A stretch of 33,042 nucleotides of DNA from Deltaproteobacteria bacterium (GTDB lineage Bacteria > Myxococcota_A > Polyangia > Polyangiales > Houyiibacteriaceae). This document shows, one piece after another, positions 13,299-24,162 of this stretch. Each line of letters starts with the position of its first letter. Positions within the stretch are counted from its first letter, which is position 1. The notes under the pieces are model-generated. The model did not search any database and was not told the DNA's origin. It was given only the letters and a program-made list of their open reading frames with translations. A program made the position numbers and the translations under genes. The stretch is from the NCBI GenBank assembly GCA_019313915.1, contig JAFDAJ010000034.1, positions 1 through 33,042 on the forward strand, read 5' to 3'.

Positions 13299-15068
13299 CT
13301 AGCGCGCCGGCGGCTCGTCGATCACGACGGGATTGCGGGCCGGAGCGTCCGGCGTGCCAGTAGGAGGCGGTGGCTCCCTGGGGAAGTCGGGAACGGTCCA
13401 GTCAATCCCATCATCCGACTCAGGCGACGTCTCCTTCTCGGTTCCGGCTCCGCTTTCGTCCCCAACCTCGCCTCCGCTCTGAGCAGCCGTCTCTGGCACC
13501 GCCACCATCTCTGCAGCTGTCTCTGGCACTGTCTCTGCCGCTGTCCCTGCCGTTGCCCCCGTCCCCGCCACTGGCCTCCTCTTGCGCGGCTTCTTCTTGG
13601 CCTTTGGCTTTGGCGGCGCCTTCTCCTCAACCACCGGCTCTTCCGTCACGACTTCCTCGACCACCACCGGCTCCACCACCGGCGCGTCGGTCCCGATGTC
13701 GGCGACTTGCGCGTCGGGCTCTGCGACGGGAGGTTGCGCTGGCATGGCCTGTGGCTCCTCGGCGGTGGCTCGTGGCGCGCGTTGCAACCACAACGCGCTG
13801 GTCACCACGGCAACCATGATCAGGCCCAACAATCCAAGCGAAGCCCAGAGCCATTTGTGATTCCGCTGCTTTGGCCGAGTCGCTGTGGCTAGGTCGTGCG
13901 ACGTAGTCCCAAAGGGCTTGGGCGCAGATGACAGGAGCGCCTCGTCGTCCGGGGTGCGATCGACTGCGATGGGTTGCGTATCGGCCAAAGGAGACGGAGA
14001 GCTCGGAGGGGCACTGGACCCGAGAAGCTCGGCCAGATACGAGCCCGGGGACGCCAACTCGTCGCCCCAGACGGTGCCGAAGAGGAGCGCCCGCGCGTCG
14101 TTCAGCAGGCCCGCATTGTCGGCCGCCTCCGCGAGAGCGTCCAAGAACTCCGCGAGTGATTGCTGGCGCGCCTCGGGGTCCTTGCTGAGCGAGCGCATCA
14201 CGACCCGGGCGACGTCGTCGGGCACCTGTGCACCCCGGCCCTTCGATTGAAGAAGAGGCGGCTCTTGGTGCACGTGCTGCATCAAGACCGCGCCCGCCGT
14301 CTTGCCTTCAAATGGAAGCTCGCCGGTGAGCAGCTGGTAGGTCAGGACGCCGAGGGAGTAAATGTCGCTTCGTTGGTCGGTCTCTTCGCCGGTCGCTGCC
14401 TCGGGCGAGATGTACGTCGCCGTTCCGAACACACGCCCGCTCTGCGTCGTCGTTGGCCCGAAGCCCTCGGCCTGCAGGACGCGGGCAATGCCGAAGTCCA
14501 CGAGCTTGACGAAGTCGGCATCTCGGCCGCGCCGCACGAGGTAGACGTTCTCGGGTTTGATATCGCGATGCACGATCCCCGCGGCGTGCACCGCTCCGAG
14601 CCCCGCGCAGAGCTTCATGATCATGATCAGCGCACGCTCGAGTGACGGCCAACCCTCCTCGTCCAGCTCATCGGCGAGCGACCGACCCTCGAGCAGCTCC
14701 ATCACGATGTAGAGCCGGCCATCGGCGAGCCGACCGGAAAGAAAAACACGGACGAGGTTCGGGTGGTCTAGCGAGATGGCTACGCGGGCTTCGCGCTCGA
14801 ACCGAAAGACCGCCTGTTCGTCGCGCGCCAGCTCAAGCCTCAAGACTTTGATGGCGACGTCGCGGCCCACCGTCGTCTGATGCGCGCGATATACGGTCCC
14901 CATCCCGCCAGTCCCGATCTGTTCCTCGATGCGAAACTGCTCGAGCAAGACGGTGCCGAGCAAGGGGTCAGCAATCTCGTCGTCGGTGACCAGCAGACTG
15001 CCGTCGTGCGGGCAATACTCGGCTCGGCTCCCAAACTTCGAACCGCAGCGAAGGCATATCTTCCGCAT
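13299..15068 (-). CDS. Transmembrane Ser/Thr protein kinase with N-terminal zinc ribbon
   Basis: A 589-residue Hanks-type kinase. A small zinc-ribbon-like segment (Cys5, Cys8, Cys19, then His21) opens the protein. The kinase domain spans about 45-315, with the glycine loop IGTGGMG (51-57), VAIK Lys74, catalytic HRD (167-169) and DFG (191-193), all intact. One membrane helix lies at about 405-429. It is followed by an extracytoplasmic tail of about 160 residues rich in Pro, Val, Glu and Ala, with a basic KAKKKPRKRR patch and repeated VPETAA units. No PASTA or other sensor domain is seen. ATG 15068 places the zinc ribbon at the start; an in-frame start farther upstream is possible. This architecture is common in myxobacteria. 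Substrates are unknown. Confidence 0.92.
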   Translation of the reverse strand: MRKICLRCGSKFGSRAEYCPHDGSLLVTDDEIADPLLGTVLLEQFRIEEQIGTGGMGTVYRAHQTTVGRDVAIKVLRLELARDEQAVFRFEREARVAISLDHPNLVRVFLSGRLADGRLYIVMELLEGRSLADELDEEGWPSLERALIMIMKLCAGLGAVHAAGIVHRDIKPENVYLVRRGRDADFVKLVDFGIARVLQAEGFGPTTTQSGRVFGTATYISPEAATGEETDQRSDIYSLGVLTYQLLTGELPFEGKTAGAVLMQHVHQEPPLLQSKGRGAQVPDDVARVVMRSLSKDPEARQQSLAEFLDALAEAADNAGLLNDARALLFGTVWGDELASPGSYLAELLGSSAPPSSPSPLADTQPIAVDRTPDDEALLSSAPKPFGTTSHDLATATRPKQRNHKWLWASLGLLGLIMVAVVTSALWLQRAPRATAEEPQAMPAQPPVAEPDAQVADIGTDAPVVEPVVVEEVVTEEPVVEEKAPPKPKAKKKPRKRRPVAGTGATAGTAAETVPETAAEMVAVPETAAQSGGEVGDESGAGTEKETSPESDDGIDWTVPDFPREPPPPTGTPDAPARNPVVIDEPPAR

Positions 15069-15166
15069 GTCCGTAAGCTTTCCTAAAGACCAAAGGGGCG
15101 TAGCATCTGGTAGGGGGTAGTACAATTCACCCCTCCGACGCACGTTTGGCTGCTAGCTTCACTTCC

Positions 15167-15754
15167 ATGCGCATAATTGGGGGTCGGCTTTCGGGGCGCA
15201 GGTTCGGCGCACCAAGCGGGCGGGGCACACGGCCGACGTCGGACCGCGCCCGAGAGGCCCTCGCCTCCGCGCTCGAGTCTCGCGGCGCGTTTCACGGCGC
15301 GCGCGTGATGGATCTGTTCGCGGGGACGGGAGCATTTAGCTTCGAGGCGCTTTCCCGGGGCGCATCAGAGGCCGTCGTGGTGGACTGCGATCCGCGAGCC
15401 ATCCGGCAGCTCATCCAGAGCGCAAAGGAGCTCGAGCTCAGCGCGCAGATCCTCACCTCGCGGGTGAACCTTCTGGGTGAACCCGCCGGGGCCATTCGAA
15501 AGCTTCCAGAAGCAGCCGCGGGCTTCAGTTTGGTGTTTGCCGACGCGCCGTACTCCGAAATCGACTCGGTCCCGCCGCTCCTGGACGCACTGGTTGCGGC
15601 CGGTCGACTGGCCCCAGGCGCCTGGGTCGTCATCGAGCACCCGGCAACCCACGAGTGGCGCTGGCCAAATCAACTCGCGTCGGACGCGGACTACCGCTAT
15701 GGTCAGACCGGTATTAGCCTCGGCGTCTACGCACCCGAGAAAGGCAGACAGTGA
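15167..15754 (+). CDS. rsmD: 16S rRNA (guanine(966)-N2)-methyltransferase RsmD
   Basis: A 195-residue SAM-dependent methyltransferase that modifies G966 of 16S rRNA during 30S assembly. MRIIGGRLSGRRF at the N-terminus and RPTSDRAREALASAL (22-36) are RsmD hallmarks. The SAM motif is VMDLFAGTGAFSFEALSRGA (48-67). The catalytic motif IV reads DAPY (126-129) instead of the usual DPPF/DPPY. ATG 15167 is chosen because the conserved N-terminus begins there. The TGA stop overlaps the GTG start of coaD by 4 bp, a pairing of rsmD and coaD seen in many bacteria. Confidence 0.94.
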   Translation: MRIIGGRLSGRRFGAPSGRGTRPTSDRAREALASALESRGAFHGARVMDLFAGTGAFSFEALSRGASEAVVVDCDPRAIRQLIQSAKELELSAQILTSRVNLLGEPAGAIRKLPEAAAGFSLVFADAPYSEIDSVPPLLDALVAAGRLAPGAWVVIEHPATHEWRWPNQLASDADYRYGQTGISLGVYAPEKGRQ

Positions 15755-16245
15755 GAGGCATCGCCGTTTATCCCGGGTCGTTCGACCCGATCACCAAGGG
15801 ACACACCGCCATCCTTCATGCAGGCTTGGTGGCATTCGAGACGATCATCGTCGCGGTTCTGAACAACGAAAAAAAAGAGGCACTGTTTAGTGTGGCCGAG
15901 CGAATGGAGATGATTCGAGAGTCGGCGGCCGAAATGGGCGCCGATCCGGGCCGCATCGAGGTCGATAGCTTCGACGGCCTTCTAGTCAACTACGCCCAGC
16001 GCCGGAATTCGCGCGTCATCCTGCGTGGCCTTCGCGCCGTCGCAGACTTCGAATACGAGCTTCAGATGGCCAACATGAACCGTCATCTCAACCAGGACGT
16101 CGAGACGGTGTTCATCATGGCCAACGATGCGTACTTCTACGTCGCGTCCAACCTCGTCAAAGAGGTTGCAAGGCTGGGCGGCAACGTCGCGGACTTGGTG
16201 CCCGGTCCCGTCCTGCCAAGGCTCCTCGCCAAGTTCGACAAGTAG
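15751..16245 (+). CDS. coaD: Phosphopantetheine adenylyltransferase
   Basis: A 164-residue enzyme of the nucleotidyltransferase superfamily that joins ATP and 4'-phosphopantetheine to give dephospho-CoA, the penultimate step of CoA synthesis. YPGSFDPITKGH (7-18) contains the nucleotide-binding T/HxGH motif. ILRGLRAVADFEYELQMANMNR is the conserved central stretch, and YVASNLVKEVARLGG the C-terminal one. Length is typical. The GTG start at 15751 overlaps the rsmD stop as GTGA. Its last 109 bp are covered on the other strand by the end of the DUF1704 gene. Confidence 0.97.
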   Translation: MRGIAVYPGSFDPITKGHTAILHAGLVAFETIIVAVLNNEKKEALFSVAERMEMIRESAAEMGADPGRIEVDSFDGLLVNYAQRRNSRVILRGLRAVADFEYELQMANMNRHLNQDVETVFIMANDAYFYVASNLVKEVARLGGNVADLVPGPVLPRLLAKFDK

Positions 16246-17414
16246 ATCGGCTGGCTGACGAGCCCTTCGCGAGCGAGCCGCCGTAGCTCCGGCAAGGCGC
16301 CCAGCGAGACCTTCCCCAGCTGCAGCTCCCCGAGACTCGTCTCTCCGCGGGCGACCGCACGGCGCACTCGCAACCAGCTGGTCAAATAGACTGCATCGCG
16401 CGCAACGCCGCCTGCTCGGAAGGCTCGTTCGCAGAGCGTCACCGCTCCGCCTGCAGAAAAATCATGTTCGCTAACCAACGTGCGCGCAGCGTCGCCGAAC
16501 GACACGCCGGCATGCATCGCGTGCGTCGCGAGCAAGCGGCCAGCCAACGTCCTTTGGCGGCACGGGCTCAGCAGCCCCGCAAGCTCTTCGAGGTAGATCG
16601 CCACGCCCTCCTGGTCGCCGTAGGAGCCCGCAGTACCGATGGCGAAAACCCCCAATGCCTGGGCGCGACCATTGAATGCCGACACCAAATGCCCGTAGAC
16701 CTCGTGCGTTGCGAGACGCTGCGCCTCGTACGCGCCAAAAAGCCGGTCTGCGATGAAGACGGTGCGCTCGCCCACGGCGGCATTCGCGATCAGATTCGGA
16801 TCGACCCGCACCGCAATGTGCAGGCGGACATGCTTGGCGTACGCGAGCATGAGGTCGCGCAGATTGACGCCCTTGGCCGACGCTGCAGGGATGGTCTTGG
16901 GTTCCTGCTGCAAGGGAGTGTGGGCAAGAATCTCGTGCGCGGCGTCGAGGACGGTGTGCTCGCCATCTGAAAAGAGCCGCTCGCTGCCAGTGCCGAAAAG
17001 TCGCGCGGCCATTGGACGCACTTGCTTGCTACGTCCGAGAGATTCGAGGAGCAGCAGCTCGGTTTCGAGCTCTTCCAGCCGCTGCACATAGAGGTCAGAG
17101 GCTACCGAATCAACAGCGAGCTCCCTCGCGCGTGCGAGCTCGCGCCACACGCTTCGCTCGACGGCGACGGGCTTCCATTCCCAACACGGCTTGGCATGCT
17201 CACCCCTTGCGACGGAGTTGGTGAGCCGCTGACGTTCGACGGGGTCGCTATGAGTCGTCGAGCCGACGAGGTGCCGCGCTGCGCCATGCAAACGGCGCAA
17301 CGCAACATCGAGCTCCGCCTGATGACGGCGAGCGCGCGGGCCGTGAGGGCCATCAGAGAAGCTGCGTCGCGCGGTCTGCGAGCTCACTTCGCTCACCTTT
17401 CGAGAGTGTGACAT
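16137..17414 (-). CDS. DUF1704 / QEGLA-motif metallopeptidase (MATCAP/KIAA0895-like)
   Basis: A 425-residue protein of the DUF1704 family, sometimes named flavohemoglobin expression-modulating QEGLA-motif protein. Its eukaryotic relatives (MATCAP/KIAA0895) are tubulin tyrosine carboxypeptidases. The metal motif HExxxH is present as HEVYGH (237-242), and DQEGVAIYLEEL (267-278) gives the QEG motif with the third ligand Glu269. The N-terminal 80 residues are basic and poorly conserved in appearance. The start is uncertain: ATG 17414 is used, while GTG at 17387 has an AAAGG site upstream. Either way the gene begins inside the end of the PhoH gene. Its 3' end overlaps convergent coaD by 109 bp. 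The bacterial substrate is unknown. Confidence 0.82.
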   Translation of the reverse strand: MSHSRKVSEVSSQTARRSFSDGPHGPRARRHQAELDVALRRLHGAARHLVGSTTHSDPVERQRLTNSVARGEHAKPCWEWKPVAVERSVWRELARARELAVDSVASDLYVQRLEELETELLLLESLGRSKQVRPMAARLFGTGSERLFSDGEHTVLDAAHEILAHTPLQQEPKTIPAASAKGVNLRDLMLAYAKHVRLHIAVRVDPNLIANAAVGERTVFIADRLFGAYEAQRLATHEVYGHLVSAFNGRAQALGVFAIGTAGSYGDQEGVAIYLEELAGLLSPCRQRTLAGRLLATHAMHAGVSFGDAARTLVSEHDFSAGGAVTLCERAFRAGGVARDAVYLTSWLRVRRAVARGETSLGELQLGKVSLGALPELRRLAREGLVSQPIYLSNLARSLGRTGPGTKSATLPPSLATSLTRLDAT

Positions 17415-18693
17415 GGGCACCGATGTTCTCATTCTGAAAACGCTGCGCGACGACGGTAAGGCCGTTGCTCGCGGCATCCACATAGGGGTTGTCGATTTGG
17501 TACGGGTCGCCGGTGAGGACTATCTTCGTGTCGGCTCCACAACGGGTGATCACCGTCTTCACCTGATGAGGAGTGAGGTTCTGCGCTTCGTCGACGACCA
17601 GAAACTGATGCGGAAGGGAGCGGCCACGAATATACGTGAGCGGCTCGACCTGGATGACGCCCGACGCAACGAGCTCTTCGTAGTTGCGGTACTCTGACAT
17701 GCGGCCGCGCCCACTGCTGAAGATGTACTCGAGATTGTCGAATATCGGCTGCATCCAGGGGTTGAGCTTTTCTTCGACGGTCCCCGGTAGATAGCCCACG
17801 TCGCGACCCATGGGAAAGATCGGGCGTGAGACGAGCATTCGGCTGTACGCGCCGTCTTGCACGACGGACTGGAGTCCAGCTGCGATAGCAAGCAGCGTTT
17901 TCCCGGTGCCCGCCTTCCCGATCAACGTCAACAAATGAATCTGTGGCGAGAGCAGCATGTCGAGTGCGAAGTATTGCTCGAGGTTTCGGGGCCGAACGCG
18001 CCAGACCCCCTCGCGACCGACCCGGAGGGGGACAATCGCTTCGCTCTTGGGATCGAATCGTCCGAGTGCGGTGTGCCTGGGTTGATCGTGCTCACGAAGC
18101 ACGACACCTGCGTTCGGGTAGAGCTCGACGTCGAGCGCGCTGGCATCGACTGGCTCCCGCTGGGCCAATTGATCGACCACGTCGCGACCCACATCGGCGG
18201 TGACGACGCCCGAGTAGAGCTCGTCAATTGAGACACGCCCGCCCTCGTAGGTCTCTGCCTTGAGCCCGAGCGCGTCGGCACGAATGCGGAGGTTCGTGTC
18301 CATGGTGACGAAAATGAGCGGCTCATCCGGGCTCTGGTCTCGGAGGTCGAGCGCCATCTGCAAGATGAAACGGTCCATCTCACCGGGCCCAGGGGCTCGC
18401 TTGGGCATCTCGGTTGGGACGGCGACCCGGAGCTCTCCGCCAGTGCTCTCGAGCGGCACCCCTTGGTCGAGAGTGCGACCGTTCTGATTGCGAAGCTCGT
18501 CGAGAATGCGCGAGAGGTGCCGCGCGTTCTGCCCCAACTCGCTCAACTCTTTTTTGAATTGATCGACCTCTTCGATCACGAAGATCGGTAGGACGACCGC
18601 GTTGTCTTCGAATTTATAGACCGCTAATGGGTCGTGAAGGACCACATTGGTGTCCAAGACGTAGGTCTTCTTCACGTTGAAGAACGCTAGCAT
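17353..18693 (-). CDS. PIN-PhoH family ATPase/RNase (PhoH2/YlaK-like)
   Basis: A 446-residue fusion of an N-terminal PIN ribonuclease domain (about 1-160) and a C-terminal PhoH ATPase domain (about 235-440). The PIN acidic residues include Asp14 in VLDTN, Glu41/Glu42 and Asp132 in VTMDTNLR. PhoH carries Walker A GKAGTGKT (259-266), the family stretch RPIFPMGRDVGYLPGTVEEK, and Walker B VVDEAQ (366-371). PhoH2 proteins of this architecture have been described as ATP-dependent RNA-unwinding and cleaving enzymes. The DUF1704 gene starts 61 bp before this stop, so the two are coupled. It is divergent from the TauE/SafE gene with 60 bp between starts. Confidence 0.93.
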   Translation of the reverse strand: MLAFFNVKKTYVLDTNVVLHDPLAVYKFEDNAVVLPIFVIEEVDQFKKELSELGQNARHLSRILDELRNQNGRTLDQGVPLESTGGELRVAVPTEMPKRAPGPGEMDRFILQMALDLRDQSPDEPLIFVTMDTNLRIRADALGLKAETYEGGRVSIDELYSGVVTADVGRDVVDQLAQREPVDASALDVELYPNAGVVLREHDQPRHTALGRFDPKSEAIVPLRVGREGVWRVRPRNLEQYFALDMLLSPQIHLLTLIGKAGTGKTLLAIAAGLQSVVQDGAYSRMLVSRPIFPMGRDVGYLPGTVEEKLNPWMQPIFDNLEYIFSSGRGRMSEYRNYEELVASGVIQVEPLTYIRGRSLPHQFLVVDEAQNLTPHQVKTVITRCGADTKIVLTGDPYQIDNPYVDAASNGLTVVAQRFQNENIGAHVTLSKGERSELADRATQLL

Positions 18694-19544: not shown

Positions 19545-19566
19545 GATCGCTGAGGAGGACTTGGCG

Positions 19567-21507
19567 ATGGGGGAAATGGTCAAGCAGATAGCTGCCCTGC
19601 AGGACTACGAACGCTACCAGGATCTACACTGGGAAGGTTCCTTCGAAGATTACCTTCAGATCATCAGGGAGAAGCCGCAGGTCACGCGCAATGCGTTCCA
19701 GCGTCTTTACGACATGGTCATCTCCTACGGTGAAGAAGAGTACATCGACAACAAGAAGAAGCTGATCCGCTACCCGTTCTTCAAAGACCCGGTCGAGAAC
19801 GGCAAGGACGCGATCTTTGGTTTGGACATTCCGCTAATGCGCTTGGTGCATGTGCTTCATGCGGCTGCACAAGGTTACGGCCCGGAAAAACGAATCATCT
19901 TGCTCCACGGTCCGGTCGGTTCGTCGAAAAGCACGATCGCGCGGCTGCTGAAGAAGGGGCTCGAACGCTACTCCCGTACCGCCGAGGGCGCGCTGTACAC
20001 CTACGAATGGACCAATCTAGACTCGACGGGGCTCGCGGGGGGCGACGACGTGTTCCCGTGTCCCATGCACGACGAGCCACTTCGTTTGATTCCGGCCGAA
20101 TGGCGCGACGCGGCGATGCAAGAGCTGCGATTGGGAGATGACCGGAGGCGCATCAACGTGCGTGGTGAGCTCAACCCCGCGTGCCGATTCATCTTCCGAA
20201 GCCTGCTCGAACGTTACGACGGCGACTGGTCCAAGGTGATGGGCAACCACATCAAGATCAAGCGTTTGGTCTTGAGCGAGCAGGACCGGGACCCTCGCGC
20301 ATTCAACTTCGACGGGGAATTCAACATTGCGAACCGTGGCGTGGTCGAGTTCGTCGAGGTCTTGAAACTGGATGTCGCCTTCCTTTACGACCTACTCGGC
20401 GCAACCCAAGAGCACAAAATCAAGCCGAAGAAGTTCGCCCAGACCGACATCGACGAGGTGATCATCGGTCACACGAACGAAGCGGAGTACAAGAAGCTCA
20501 TCAACAACGAGTTCATGGAAGCGCTTCGCGACCGCACGATCAAGATCGACATCCCATACATCACCAAGATGAGCGAAGAGATCAAGATCTACCAGAAGGA
20601 CTTCAGCTCCGCTCGCTTGCGCGGCAAGCACGTCGCGCCGCACACGCTCGAGGTGGCGGCGATGTGGGCTGTGTTGAGTCGTCTCGAGGAGCCCAAGAAG
20701 CATCAGCTCGCGCTGCTTCAAAAACTGAAGCTCTACGACGGCAAGATCCTGCCAGGCTACACGCAAGACAACGTGAAGGAACTGCGCAAGGAAGCGATCC
20801 GCGAGGGGCTCGAGGGCATGTCGCCCCGATACGTGCAGGACAAGATCAGCAACTCGCTCGTGCGCGAGGGGACCGAGGGGTACATCAACCCGTTCATGGT
20901 GCTCAACGAGCTCGAAAAGGGACTCCGTGCATCGCTTACCGTCGGTGAGGATCAACGCAAGCGATATGGCGAGCTGATCGGTGTCGTGAAGGCCGAGTAC
21001 GACGAGATGGTCAAGAACGAGGTGCAGCGCGCAATCAGTGCCGACGAAGAGGCGATCGGGCGGCTGTCTGCGAACTACGTCGACAATATCCGGGCCTACT
21101 TGATGAAGGAGAAGGTCAAAAACAAGTACACCGGCAAGGACGAAGAGCCGGACGAGCGCCTGATGCGGTCGATCGAAGAGAAGATCGACATCACCGACTC
21201 TCGCAAGGACGACTTCCGTCGCGAGATCATGAACTTCATCGGGCACCTAGCCCTCGAAGGTAAGAAGTTCACCTACGAGACGAACGACCGTCTGCGGCGC
21301 GCACTCGAAATGAAGCTCTTCGAAGACCAGAAGGACTCGATCAAGCTGTCGAGCTTCGTGTCCAACGTCATCGACAAAGAGACGCAAGACAGGATCGACA
21401 TCATCAAGAACCGGCTAATCAAGTACTTTGGCTACAACGAGGCGTCAGCGACGGATGTGCTCGCTTACGTCGCCAGCATCTTCGCGAGGGGCGACGTAAA
21501 GGAGTAA
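19567..21507 (+). CDS. prkA: PrkA family serine protein kinase (YeaG-like)
   Basis: A 646-residue AAA-type protein of the PrkA family. In E. coli the relative YeaG acts in stress and nutrient starvation; in Bacillus PrkA affects sporulation. The family N-terminus is clear ([20 protein letters not shown], 26-45). The ATP-binding loop is [10 protein letters not shown] (114-123), with a long helical domain after it. ATG 19567 is preferred over TTG 19561 because AGGAGG then lies at a normal spacing of 8 bases. It is the first gene of the well-known prkA-yeaH-spoVR set, and its stop is 3 bp before the next start. Both AAA+ protease and kinase activities have been proposed for this family. Confidence 0.95.
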
Positions 21508-21510
21508 CGC

Positions 21511-22620
<1,110 letters not shown>

Positions 22621-22623
22621 CGA

Positions 22624-24158
<1,535 letters not shown>

Positions 24159-24162
<4 letters not shown>

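What the first reader, a model, noticed from the sequence alone, without database searches (positions are those of the whole stretch)
16137..18693. PIN-PhoH ATPase paired with a MATCAP-like metallopeptidase
The peptidase gene starts about 60 bp inside the PhoH2 gene, so they are made together. PhoH2 is an RNA helicase/RNase with toxin-antitoxin-like roots; DUF1704 peptidases trim C-terminal residues from proteins in eukaryotes. An RNA-cleaving ATPase next to a carboxypeptidase-like enzyme could form an RNA/protein quality-control or stress module that I do not know as a described system.
Basis: partly seen in the sequence, partly recalled or inferred. Interest (0 to 1): 0.5.

Follow-up and report, generated by a model that had tools for sequence, protein, structure and literature searches.

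The report
RNA helicase paired with tail-trimming peptidase
In a large group of myxobacteria, a gene for an RNA-cutting motor protein sits next to a gene for a relative of the human enzyme that trims the tail of tubulin, and in one large family the two stay neighbours although the genes around them have changed, which suggests an undescribed joint role that can be tested.

Summary
Window 17353-18693(-) encodes a PIN-PhoH (PhoH2-like) protein. 16137-17387(-) encodes a MATCAP-family (PF08014) metallopeptidase with an intact HEVYGH...QEG site. The model matches human MATCAP (Z 21.9). The "60 bp" overlap is not conserved: relatives share a GTG about 35 nt inside PhoH.

The pairing is not private to this genome. 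Of 154 genomes of the same order, 103 have both genes at the thresholds used. In the 86 with both on one contig they lie within 2 kb: 61 on the same strand, 25 divergent. In family f12 the pair persists while none of six other window neighbours was found (0 of 24 loci). The peptidase forms its own clade, apart from the canonical QEGLA proteins.

Neither gene strictly needs the other: 17 genomes gave the peptidase only, 6 PhoH only after correction, and no f5 genome in the sample matched either query.

Best reading: a conserved two-gene stress/RNA module, a helicase-RNase plus a C-terminal carboxypeptidase of unknown substrate. The linkage is well supported; the biochemistry is inferred. No paper on the pairing appeared in ten searches.

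The parts
17353..18693 (-). PIN-PhoH protein (446 aa): PIN_4 nuclease domain plus PhoH ATPase domain
   Evidence: Pfam PIN_4 and PhoH. D14, E41, E42, D44, D107, D132 (PIN) and G259, A261-T266, D368, E369 (PhoH) are identical in every row that covers them (92 or 93 rows of 94, near-duplicates included). That these are the catalytic residues is recalled
16137..17387 (-).
   Evidence: PF08014 161 bits; start from the frames of 13 relatives; AF2 model pLDDT 89.1 matches human MATCAP, Z 21.9, rmsd 3.1 over 280 residues
17353..17387 (-). 35-nt overlap of the peptidase start with the PhoH 3' end (translational coupling is inferred)
16689..16706 (-). HEVYGH (HExxxH) metal-binding and catalytic motif
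   Evidence: H, E, H identical in 45 of 45 aligned rows, paralogues included
16605..16613 (-). QEG, with E as the likely third metal ligand (EEG in human KIAA0895L)
   Evidence: E and G identical in 45 of 45 rows; Q is E in the three f7 rows; human EEG motif from a passage of PMC10499314
17896..17919 (-). Walker A GKAGTGKT of the PhoH domain
   Evidence: sequence; all positions but the second (K260) identical in the 92 rows that cover them
16137..16245 (.). convergent overlap of about 109 nt between peptidase 3' end and coaD 3' end
   Evidence: overlap of about 94-109 nt in 33 of 42 loci with coaD at the 3' side
15751..16245 (+). coaD (context only): convergent neighbour in most relatives outside family f12
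   Evidence: TIGR01510
19561..21507 (+). prkA (context only), followed by DUF444 yeaH 21511-22620 and spoVR 22624-24162
   Evidence: next to the pair in many relatives, not found in the fetched stretches of 24 of 24 f12 loci

Best explanation
The two genes form a conserved functional unit of one myxobacterial order (Polyangiales by my reading of record titles). The first product is a PIN-PhoH protein, an ATP-driven RNA helicase with a nuclease domain. The second is a metallocarboxypeptidase of the MATCAP fold, probably cytosolic, that trims the C-terminus of a particular protein. Both are made from one transcript here, or from divergent promoters in part of family f12, and act in one stress or RNA-handling pathway. 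Shown: families, fold of the model, intact active sites, and a linkage across much of the order that survived at least one change of relative orientation. Inferred: carboxypeptidase activity, location, co-expression, a shared pathway. Unknown: the substrate. My first guess is a C-terminal tail of a ribosome- or RNA-associated protein, PhoH itself included.
For: Of 154 genomes of the order, 120 have the peptidase clade (E up to 1e-25, query from L147), 113 PIN-PhoH (E up to 1e-90, window query) and 103 both. In 86 of 86 with both on one contig they lie within 2 kb: 60 same strand with PhoH 5', 25 divergent, 1 same strand with PhoH 3'. Four genomes scored as PhoH-only do have the peptidase next door: G229 and G257, G009 and G023. 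Orientation labels need 2 changes on the f12 peptidase tree, 1 forced by well-supported branches; the PhoH-3' case was left out of the labels. In 24 f12 loci PhoH is beside the peptidase, while coaD, rsmD, TauE, PrkA, YeaH and SpoVR are found in 0 of 24 (20 of these 24 loci were chosen because the pair is adjacent). The clade is separate from two other MATCAP clades of the order (99/97; long branches flagged there). Active sites are kept in both proteins. Fold: human MATCAP at Z 21.9, then DUF885 (15.8) and M32 carboxypeptidases (about 11).
Against: Neither gene is obligate for the other: 17 genomes gave the peptidase only (two of them, G007 and G015, hold PhoH fragments) and 6 remain PhoH-only, of which G131, G260 and G264 have no PF08014 match at E up to 0.001. 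In five f7 and four f3 genomes the two lie on different contigs. In 14 of 19 PhoH-less loci with room upstream, PrkA lies 5' of the peptidase. Outside the order PIN-PhoH is common, and in the eight genomes where both places are visible (both lists are cut) the MATCAP match is on another contig. The genomes are related, so the counts are not independent. No expression, binding or activity data exist here.
Confidence: 0.5

Rival explanations
1. Synteny inertia: two unrelated housekeeping or stress genes that have merely not been separated since the ancestor of the order.
For: Neither needs the other. coaD, which has no obvious link, is as constant a neighbour outside f12. Orientation changed only once or a few times.
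Against: In f12 none of the six other window neighbours tested is found while the pair remains, and it persists after a change of relative orientation.
Confidence: 0.25
2. The peptidase belongs to the PrkA-YeaH-SpoVR starvation module next door; PhoH is an accessory of that module that can be lost.
For: PrkA lies 5' of the peptidase in 14 of 19 PhoH-less loci with room upstream, within about 340 nt in 10. Two f11 genomes without a PhoH2 match keep the PrkA-peptidase arrangement.
Against: PrkA, YeaH and SpoVR are not found in the fetched stretches of 24 of 24 f12 loci that have PhoH.
Confidence: 0.1
3. The peptidase controls PhoH directly, in place of the PhoAT antitoxin of mycobacterial PhoH2, by trimming its conserved C-terminal GERSxLA...LL tail.
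For: Adjacency and overlapping frames; the PhoH C-terminus is strongly conserved; no upstream antitoxin-like ORF is conserved beyond a genus in 28 loci.
Against: PhoH in genomes without any MATCAP match (G131, G260, G264) keeps the same kind of tail, so the tail is not conserved because of the peptidase. The peptidase often occurs without PhoH.
Confidence: 0.07
4. The peptidase removes glutamates that a RimK-like ATP-grasp ligase adds to protein C-termini, as a bacterial deglutamylase.
For: The canonical paralogue in the same genus sits beside a fused N-formylglutamate amidohydrolase/ATP-grasp gene. Human and Tetrahymena homologues deglutamylate tubulin (passages of PMC10499314). The window genome has five RimK-family matches over the cut-off.
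Against: No ATP-grasp gene was among the window neighbours scanned; the RimK matches are weak (best 54 bits) and unassigned.
Confidence: 0.08

Closest known systems
Human MATCAP/TMCP1 (KIAA0895L), tubulin tyrosine carboxypeptidase, PF08014
   Same: Fold (Z 21.9, rmsd 3.1 over 280 residues); HExxxH with a downstream [EQ]EG ligand
   Different: Bacterial; substrate unknown; no tubulin context; 17% identity in the structural alignment
TIGR02421 'flavohemoglobin expression-modulating QEGLA motif' proteins (canonical bacterial DUF1704)
   Same: Same superfamily, 180 bits
   Different: Below the equivalog cut-off of 339; separate clade; the canonical paralogue of the genus neighbours an ATP-grasp/N-formylglutamate amidohydrolase gene, the window's clade neighbours PIN-PhoH
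Mycobacterial PhoH2 (PIN-PhoH RNA helicase/RNase) with PhoAT antitoxin (passages of PMC4826407)
   Same: PIN-PhoH architecture with conserved acidic and Walker residues
   Different: No PhoAT-like ORF conserved beyond a genus; 293 bits against a cut-off of 680 for NF053827; partner is a peptidase
YbeZ (PhoH-like) with YbeY, an RNase/metalloprotein pair of ribosome maturation in E. coli
   Same: A PhoH ATPase with a metallohydrolase partner (pairing partly recalled; papers seen only as listings)
   Different: The window genome has its own YbeZ-like PhoH (C13) and YbeY (C77) elsewhere; that MATCAP is an unrelated fold is recalled

Membership tests
MATCAP family (PF08014) | Profile score above the curated cut-off | tested here: met
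   161.3 bits against 27
MATCAP family (PF08014) | HExxxH plus downstream EG with a glutamate ligand | tested here: met
   HEVYGH...QEG; motif in 59 of 60 loci, the 60th a fragment without the site
MATCAP family (PF08014) | Fold of human MATCAP | tested here: met
   predicted model against 7z5g: Z 21.9 over 280 residues; Foldseek E 2.4e-05
MATCAP family (PF08014) | Carboxypeptidase activity on a protein C-terminus | not testable with these tools
   needs purified protein
TIGR02421 QEGLA equivalog | Score above the equivalog cut-off | tested here: not met
   180.1 against 338.65 bits
Mycobacterial-type PhoH2 (NF053827) | PIN and PhoH domains in one chain | tested here: met
   PIN_4 11-150, PhoH 233-439
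Mycobacterial-type PhoH2 (NF053827) | Score above the equivalog cut-off | tested here: not met
   293.4 against 680 bits
PhoH2-PhoAT toxin-antitoxin locus | Small antitoxin ORF upstream of phoH2 in the same operon | tested here: not met
   28 loci examined; same-strand ORFs of 40 aa or more near the PhoH start match one another only inside the window's genus (one set antisense to TauE, one overlapping the PhoH start out of frame, one small pair) or between two loci of one other genus
PhoH2-PhoAT toxin-antitoxin locus | Toxicity relieved by the partner | not testable with these tools
   needs expression tests

The most novel reading that the evidence does not exclude
Bacteria run a counterpart of tubulin-tail editing: a dedicated MATCAP-type carboxypeptidase edits the C-terminal tail of a ribosomal or RNA-machine protein, and this editing is coupled to a PIN-PhoH RNA helicase/RNase as one two-gene stress module in much of an order of myxobacteria.
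Probability: 0.2. Interest if true: 0.75.

Novelty: new variant of a known kind. Interest (0 to 1): 0.5.

Why it matters
MATCAP-type peptidases are known as tubulin-tail enzymes (passages of PMC10499314). None of the listings is about what their bacterial relatives do; the one bacterial mention is a row in an expression table. A clade tied to an RNA helicase/nuclease across much of an order gives a concrete partner, a phenotype to look for (RNA and ribosome stress) and a short list of candidate substrates, so the question becomes testable.

Tried and rejected
A 60-bp overlap start: rejected, because no relative has a start codon there and 9 of 13 carry a stop just downstream. Peptidase loss in genus members G001, G010 and G012, and in G030: no coaD match was found in any of them, so I read the locus as missing from the assemblies and drew nothing from it. 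PhoH tail as a peptidase-specific signature: rejected, because the tail is of the same kind in genomes without a MATCAP match. Defence-system membership: PADLOC gave no hit for the peptidase and three weak ones for PhoH (20-26 bits). Solved relatives by sequence profile: none at E up to 1; the fold search found MATCAP. Weak profile hits in L243 and L244: not counted, since the profile used there includes out-of-frame PhoH and antisense coaD sequence. Neighbour clustering in f12: besides frames over the pair itself, the most frequent clusters reach 11 of 24 loci and lie some 3 kb or more downstream by median; the one scanned is of TonB/receptor type; a response-regulator cluster reaches 10.

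Literature: ten searches. Passages seen: PMC10499314, PMC10308900, PMC12393276, PMC4826407. Other papers were seen only as listings. No paper on a PhoH/MATCAP pair appeared in these; most subscription journals are not held.

Full report
What is there. On the minus strand the window carries a 446-aa protein at 17353-18693 with PIN_4 and PhoH domains, followed by a peptidase ORF at 16137-17483 that matches PF08014 (MATCAP, 161 bits against a cut-off of 27). Downstream, rsmD-coaD converge on the peptidase; upstream, TauE and prkA-yeaH-spoVR run away from PhoH. The window is contig C83 of a 4.4-Mb draft genome with one match to the peptidase. Titles of related records read Myxococcales, Myxococcota, Polyangia, Polyangiaceae, Sandaracinaceae, Sandaracinus and Labilithrix, some only Deltaproteobacteria, 'uncultured bacterium' or, once, Proteobacteria. 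I take the order to be Polyangiales; that name is my inference.

Where the peptidase starts. In the 13 genus relatives printed no start codon stands at that place, and in 9 of them an in-frame stop follows within one to four codons (read by eye). The GTG at 17385-17387, 35 nt inside PhoH, is present in all 14 sequences including the window. In most loci of other genera the homology begins after the PhoH stop (L027/L071 is an exception). So overlap and translational coupling are plausible in this genus, with 35 nt the better figure, but overlap is not a general feature.

Is it an active peptidase. The metal site HExxxH plus [QE]EG with its following glutamate is kept in 59 of 60 distinct loci; the remaining one is a contig-end fragment. 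Three loci (family f7) have EEG instead of QEG, the form described for human KIAA0895L. Across 45 aligned rows including paralogues the invariant residues are H, E, H, E and G of the site, a second glutamate, one more G, four arginines and a tyrosine. The AlphaFold2 model of the 416-residue product has pLDDT 89.1. It matches human MATCAP with Z 21.9 and rmsd 3.1 over 280 residues, ahead of DUF885 proteins (15.8) and M32 carboxypeptidases (about 11). Activity itself is inferred.

Is PhoH intact. D14, E41, E42, D44, D107 and D132 of the PIN domain and G259, A261-T266, D368 and E369 of the PhoH domain are identical in every aligned row that covers them (92 or 93 of 94, near-duplicates included). 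Their catalytic roles are recalled from the families, not tested. The genome has a separate YbeZ-type PhoH and a YbeY on other contigs.

How general is the pairing. A scan of one genome per species found 51 loci (its patterns were tight and it may leave out near-identical records). Together with loci from held genomes I tabulated 60 loci distinct in a 60-residue core, the window itself not counted (L083 corrected). PhoH lies 5' on the same strand in 27 and divergently 5' in 9. No PhoH is seen in 19 with about 1.9 kb or more upstream, and 5 have too little sequence. In 14 of the 19, PrkA lies 5' instead. In the order-wide sample of 154 genomes the peptidase clade was found in 120, PIN-PhoH in 113 and both in 103. 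On one contig: 86, all within 2 kb. On different contigs: 17, of which G006 and G011 are contig breaks inside or beside the pair. Peptidase only: 17, of which G007 and G015 hold PhoH fragments. PhoH only: 10; four of these (G009, G023, G229, G257) do have an adjacent peptidase that the query missed, leaving 6 (G027, G052, G131, G251, G260, G264).

Why this is more than neighbourhood drift. In family f12 the peptidase is about 31-36% identical to the window's and the pair occurs both same-strand and divergent. On a tree of 60 f12 peptidases and 8 outgroup rows (two rows left out of the labels), orientation needs 2 changes, of which well-supported branches force 1; one further genome (G158) has PhoH on the other side. 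In 24 f12 stretches of about 13-19 kb none of coaD, rsmD, TauE, PrkA, YeaH or SpoVR was found. Twenty of these stretches were picked because the pair is adjacent, so the PhoH count there is by construction; the absence of the other six is not. Other clades of MATCAP show another setting where I looked: the canonical QEGLA paralogue (L088) lies beside a fused N-formylglutamate amidohydrolase/ATP-grasp gene, and the clades separate at 99/97 (long branches are flagged there). Outside the order PIN-PhoH is common, but in the eight genomes where both places are visible the MATCAP match is on another contig (both lists are cut).

Limits. Counts come from related genomes and are not independent. Many are drafts. 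Thresholds differ between the two queries. Genomes without a match were not all inspected. Losses on both sides show that neither protein absolutely needs the other. No f5 genome of the sample is among the matches of either query.

Mechanism. I commit to a two-gene module: PIN-PhoH handles RNA with ATP, the MATCAP-type enzyme trims a protein C-terminus, and both serve one stress response. Family, model fold, intact sites and linkage are shown; activity, substrate, co-expression and pathway are inferred. Mycobacterial PhoH2 has RNA-binding, unwinding and RNase activity and an antitoxin partner (passages of PMC4826407). No antitoxin-like ORF conserved beyond a genus was found here, and the PhoH tail is of the same kind in genomes without a MATCAP match, so I give low weight to a toxin-antitoxin reading.

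Noticed in passing
window 16137-16245: The peptidase and coaD overlap convergently by about 109 nt, an overlap of about 94-109 nt kept in 33 of 42 loci with coaD at the 3' side; the peptidase C-terminus there is the antisense of coaD and has low confidence in the model (residues 388-416).
   Followed up: partly
window 19561-24162: prkA, yeaH (DUF444) and spoVR form a cluster beside the pair, a known starvation/sporulation gene set (recalled), retained next to it in many relatives outside f12.
   Followed up: partly
L088 4335-9970: The canonical QEGLA paralogue of the genus sits beside a fused N-formylglutamate amidohydrolase/ATP-grasp protein, DUF2490 and a mechanosensitive channel gene; a ligase-peptidase pair worth its own study.
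   Followed up: partly
L031-L060: A third MATCAP clade (HEGWVH motif in the three rows shown) is common in family f12 and forms its own branch; its partners were not examined.
   Followed up: no
L011 (G015, single-contig genome): Only the last ~120 residues of PhoH are matched beside the peptidase, a possible recent PhoH loss.
   Followed up: no
window 19561-21507: PrkA relatives in four other genera give two match segments around residue 230-243 of the window protein, as if the window's protein lacks a short stretch there.
   Followed up: no
L251, L252, L253 (G254): One genome carries two PIN-PhoH genes on separate contigs, and its peptidase lies on a third contig.
   Followed up: no
window 13299-15143: Ser/Thr protein kinase with a likely zinc-ribbon N-terminus (CxxC...C, by eye) and a long Pro/Ala/Glu-rich tail.
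   Followed up: no
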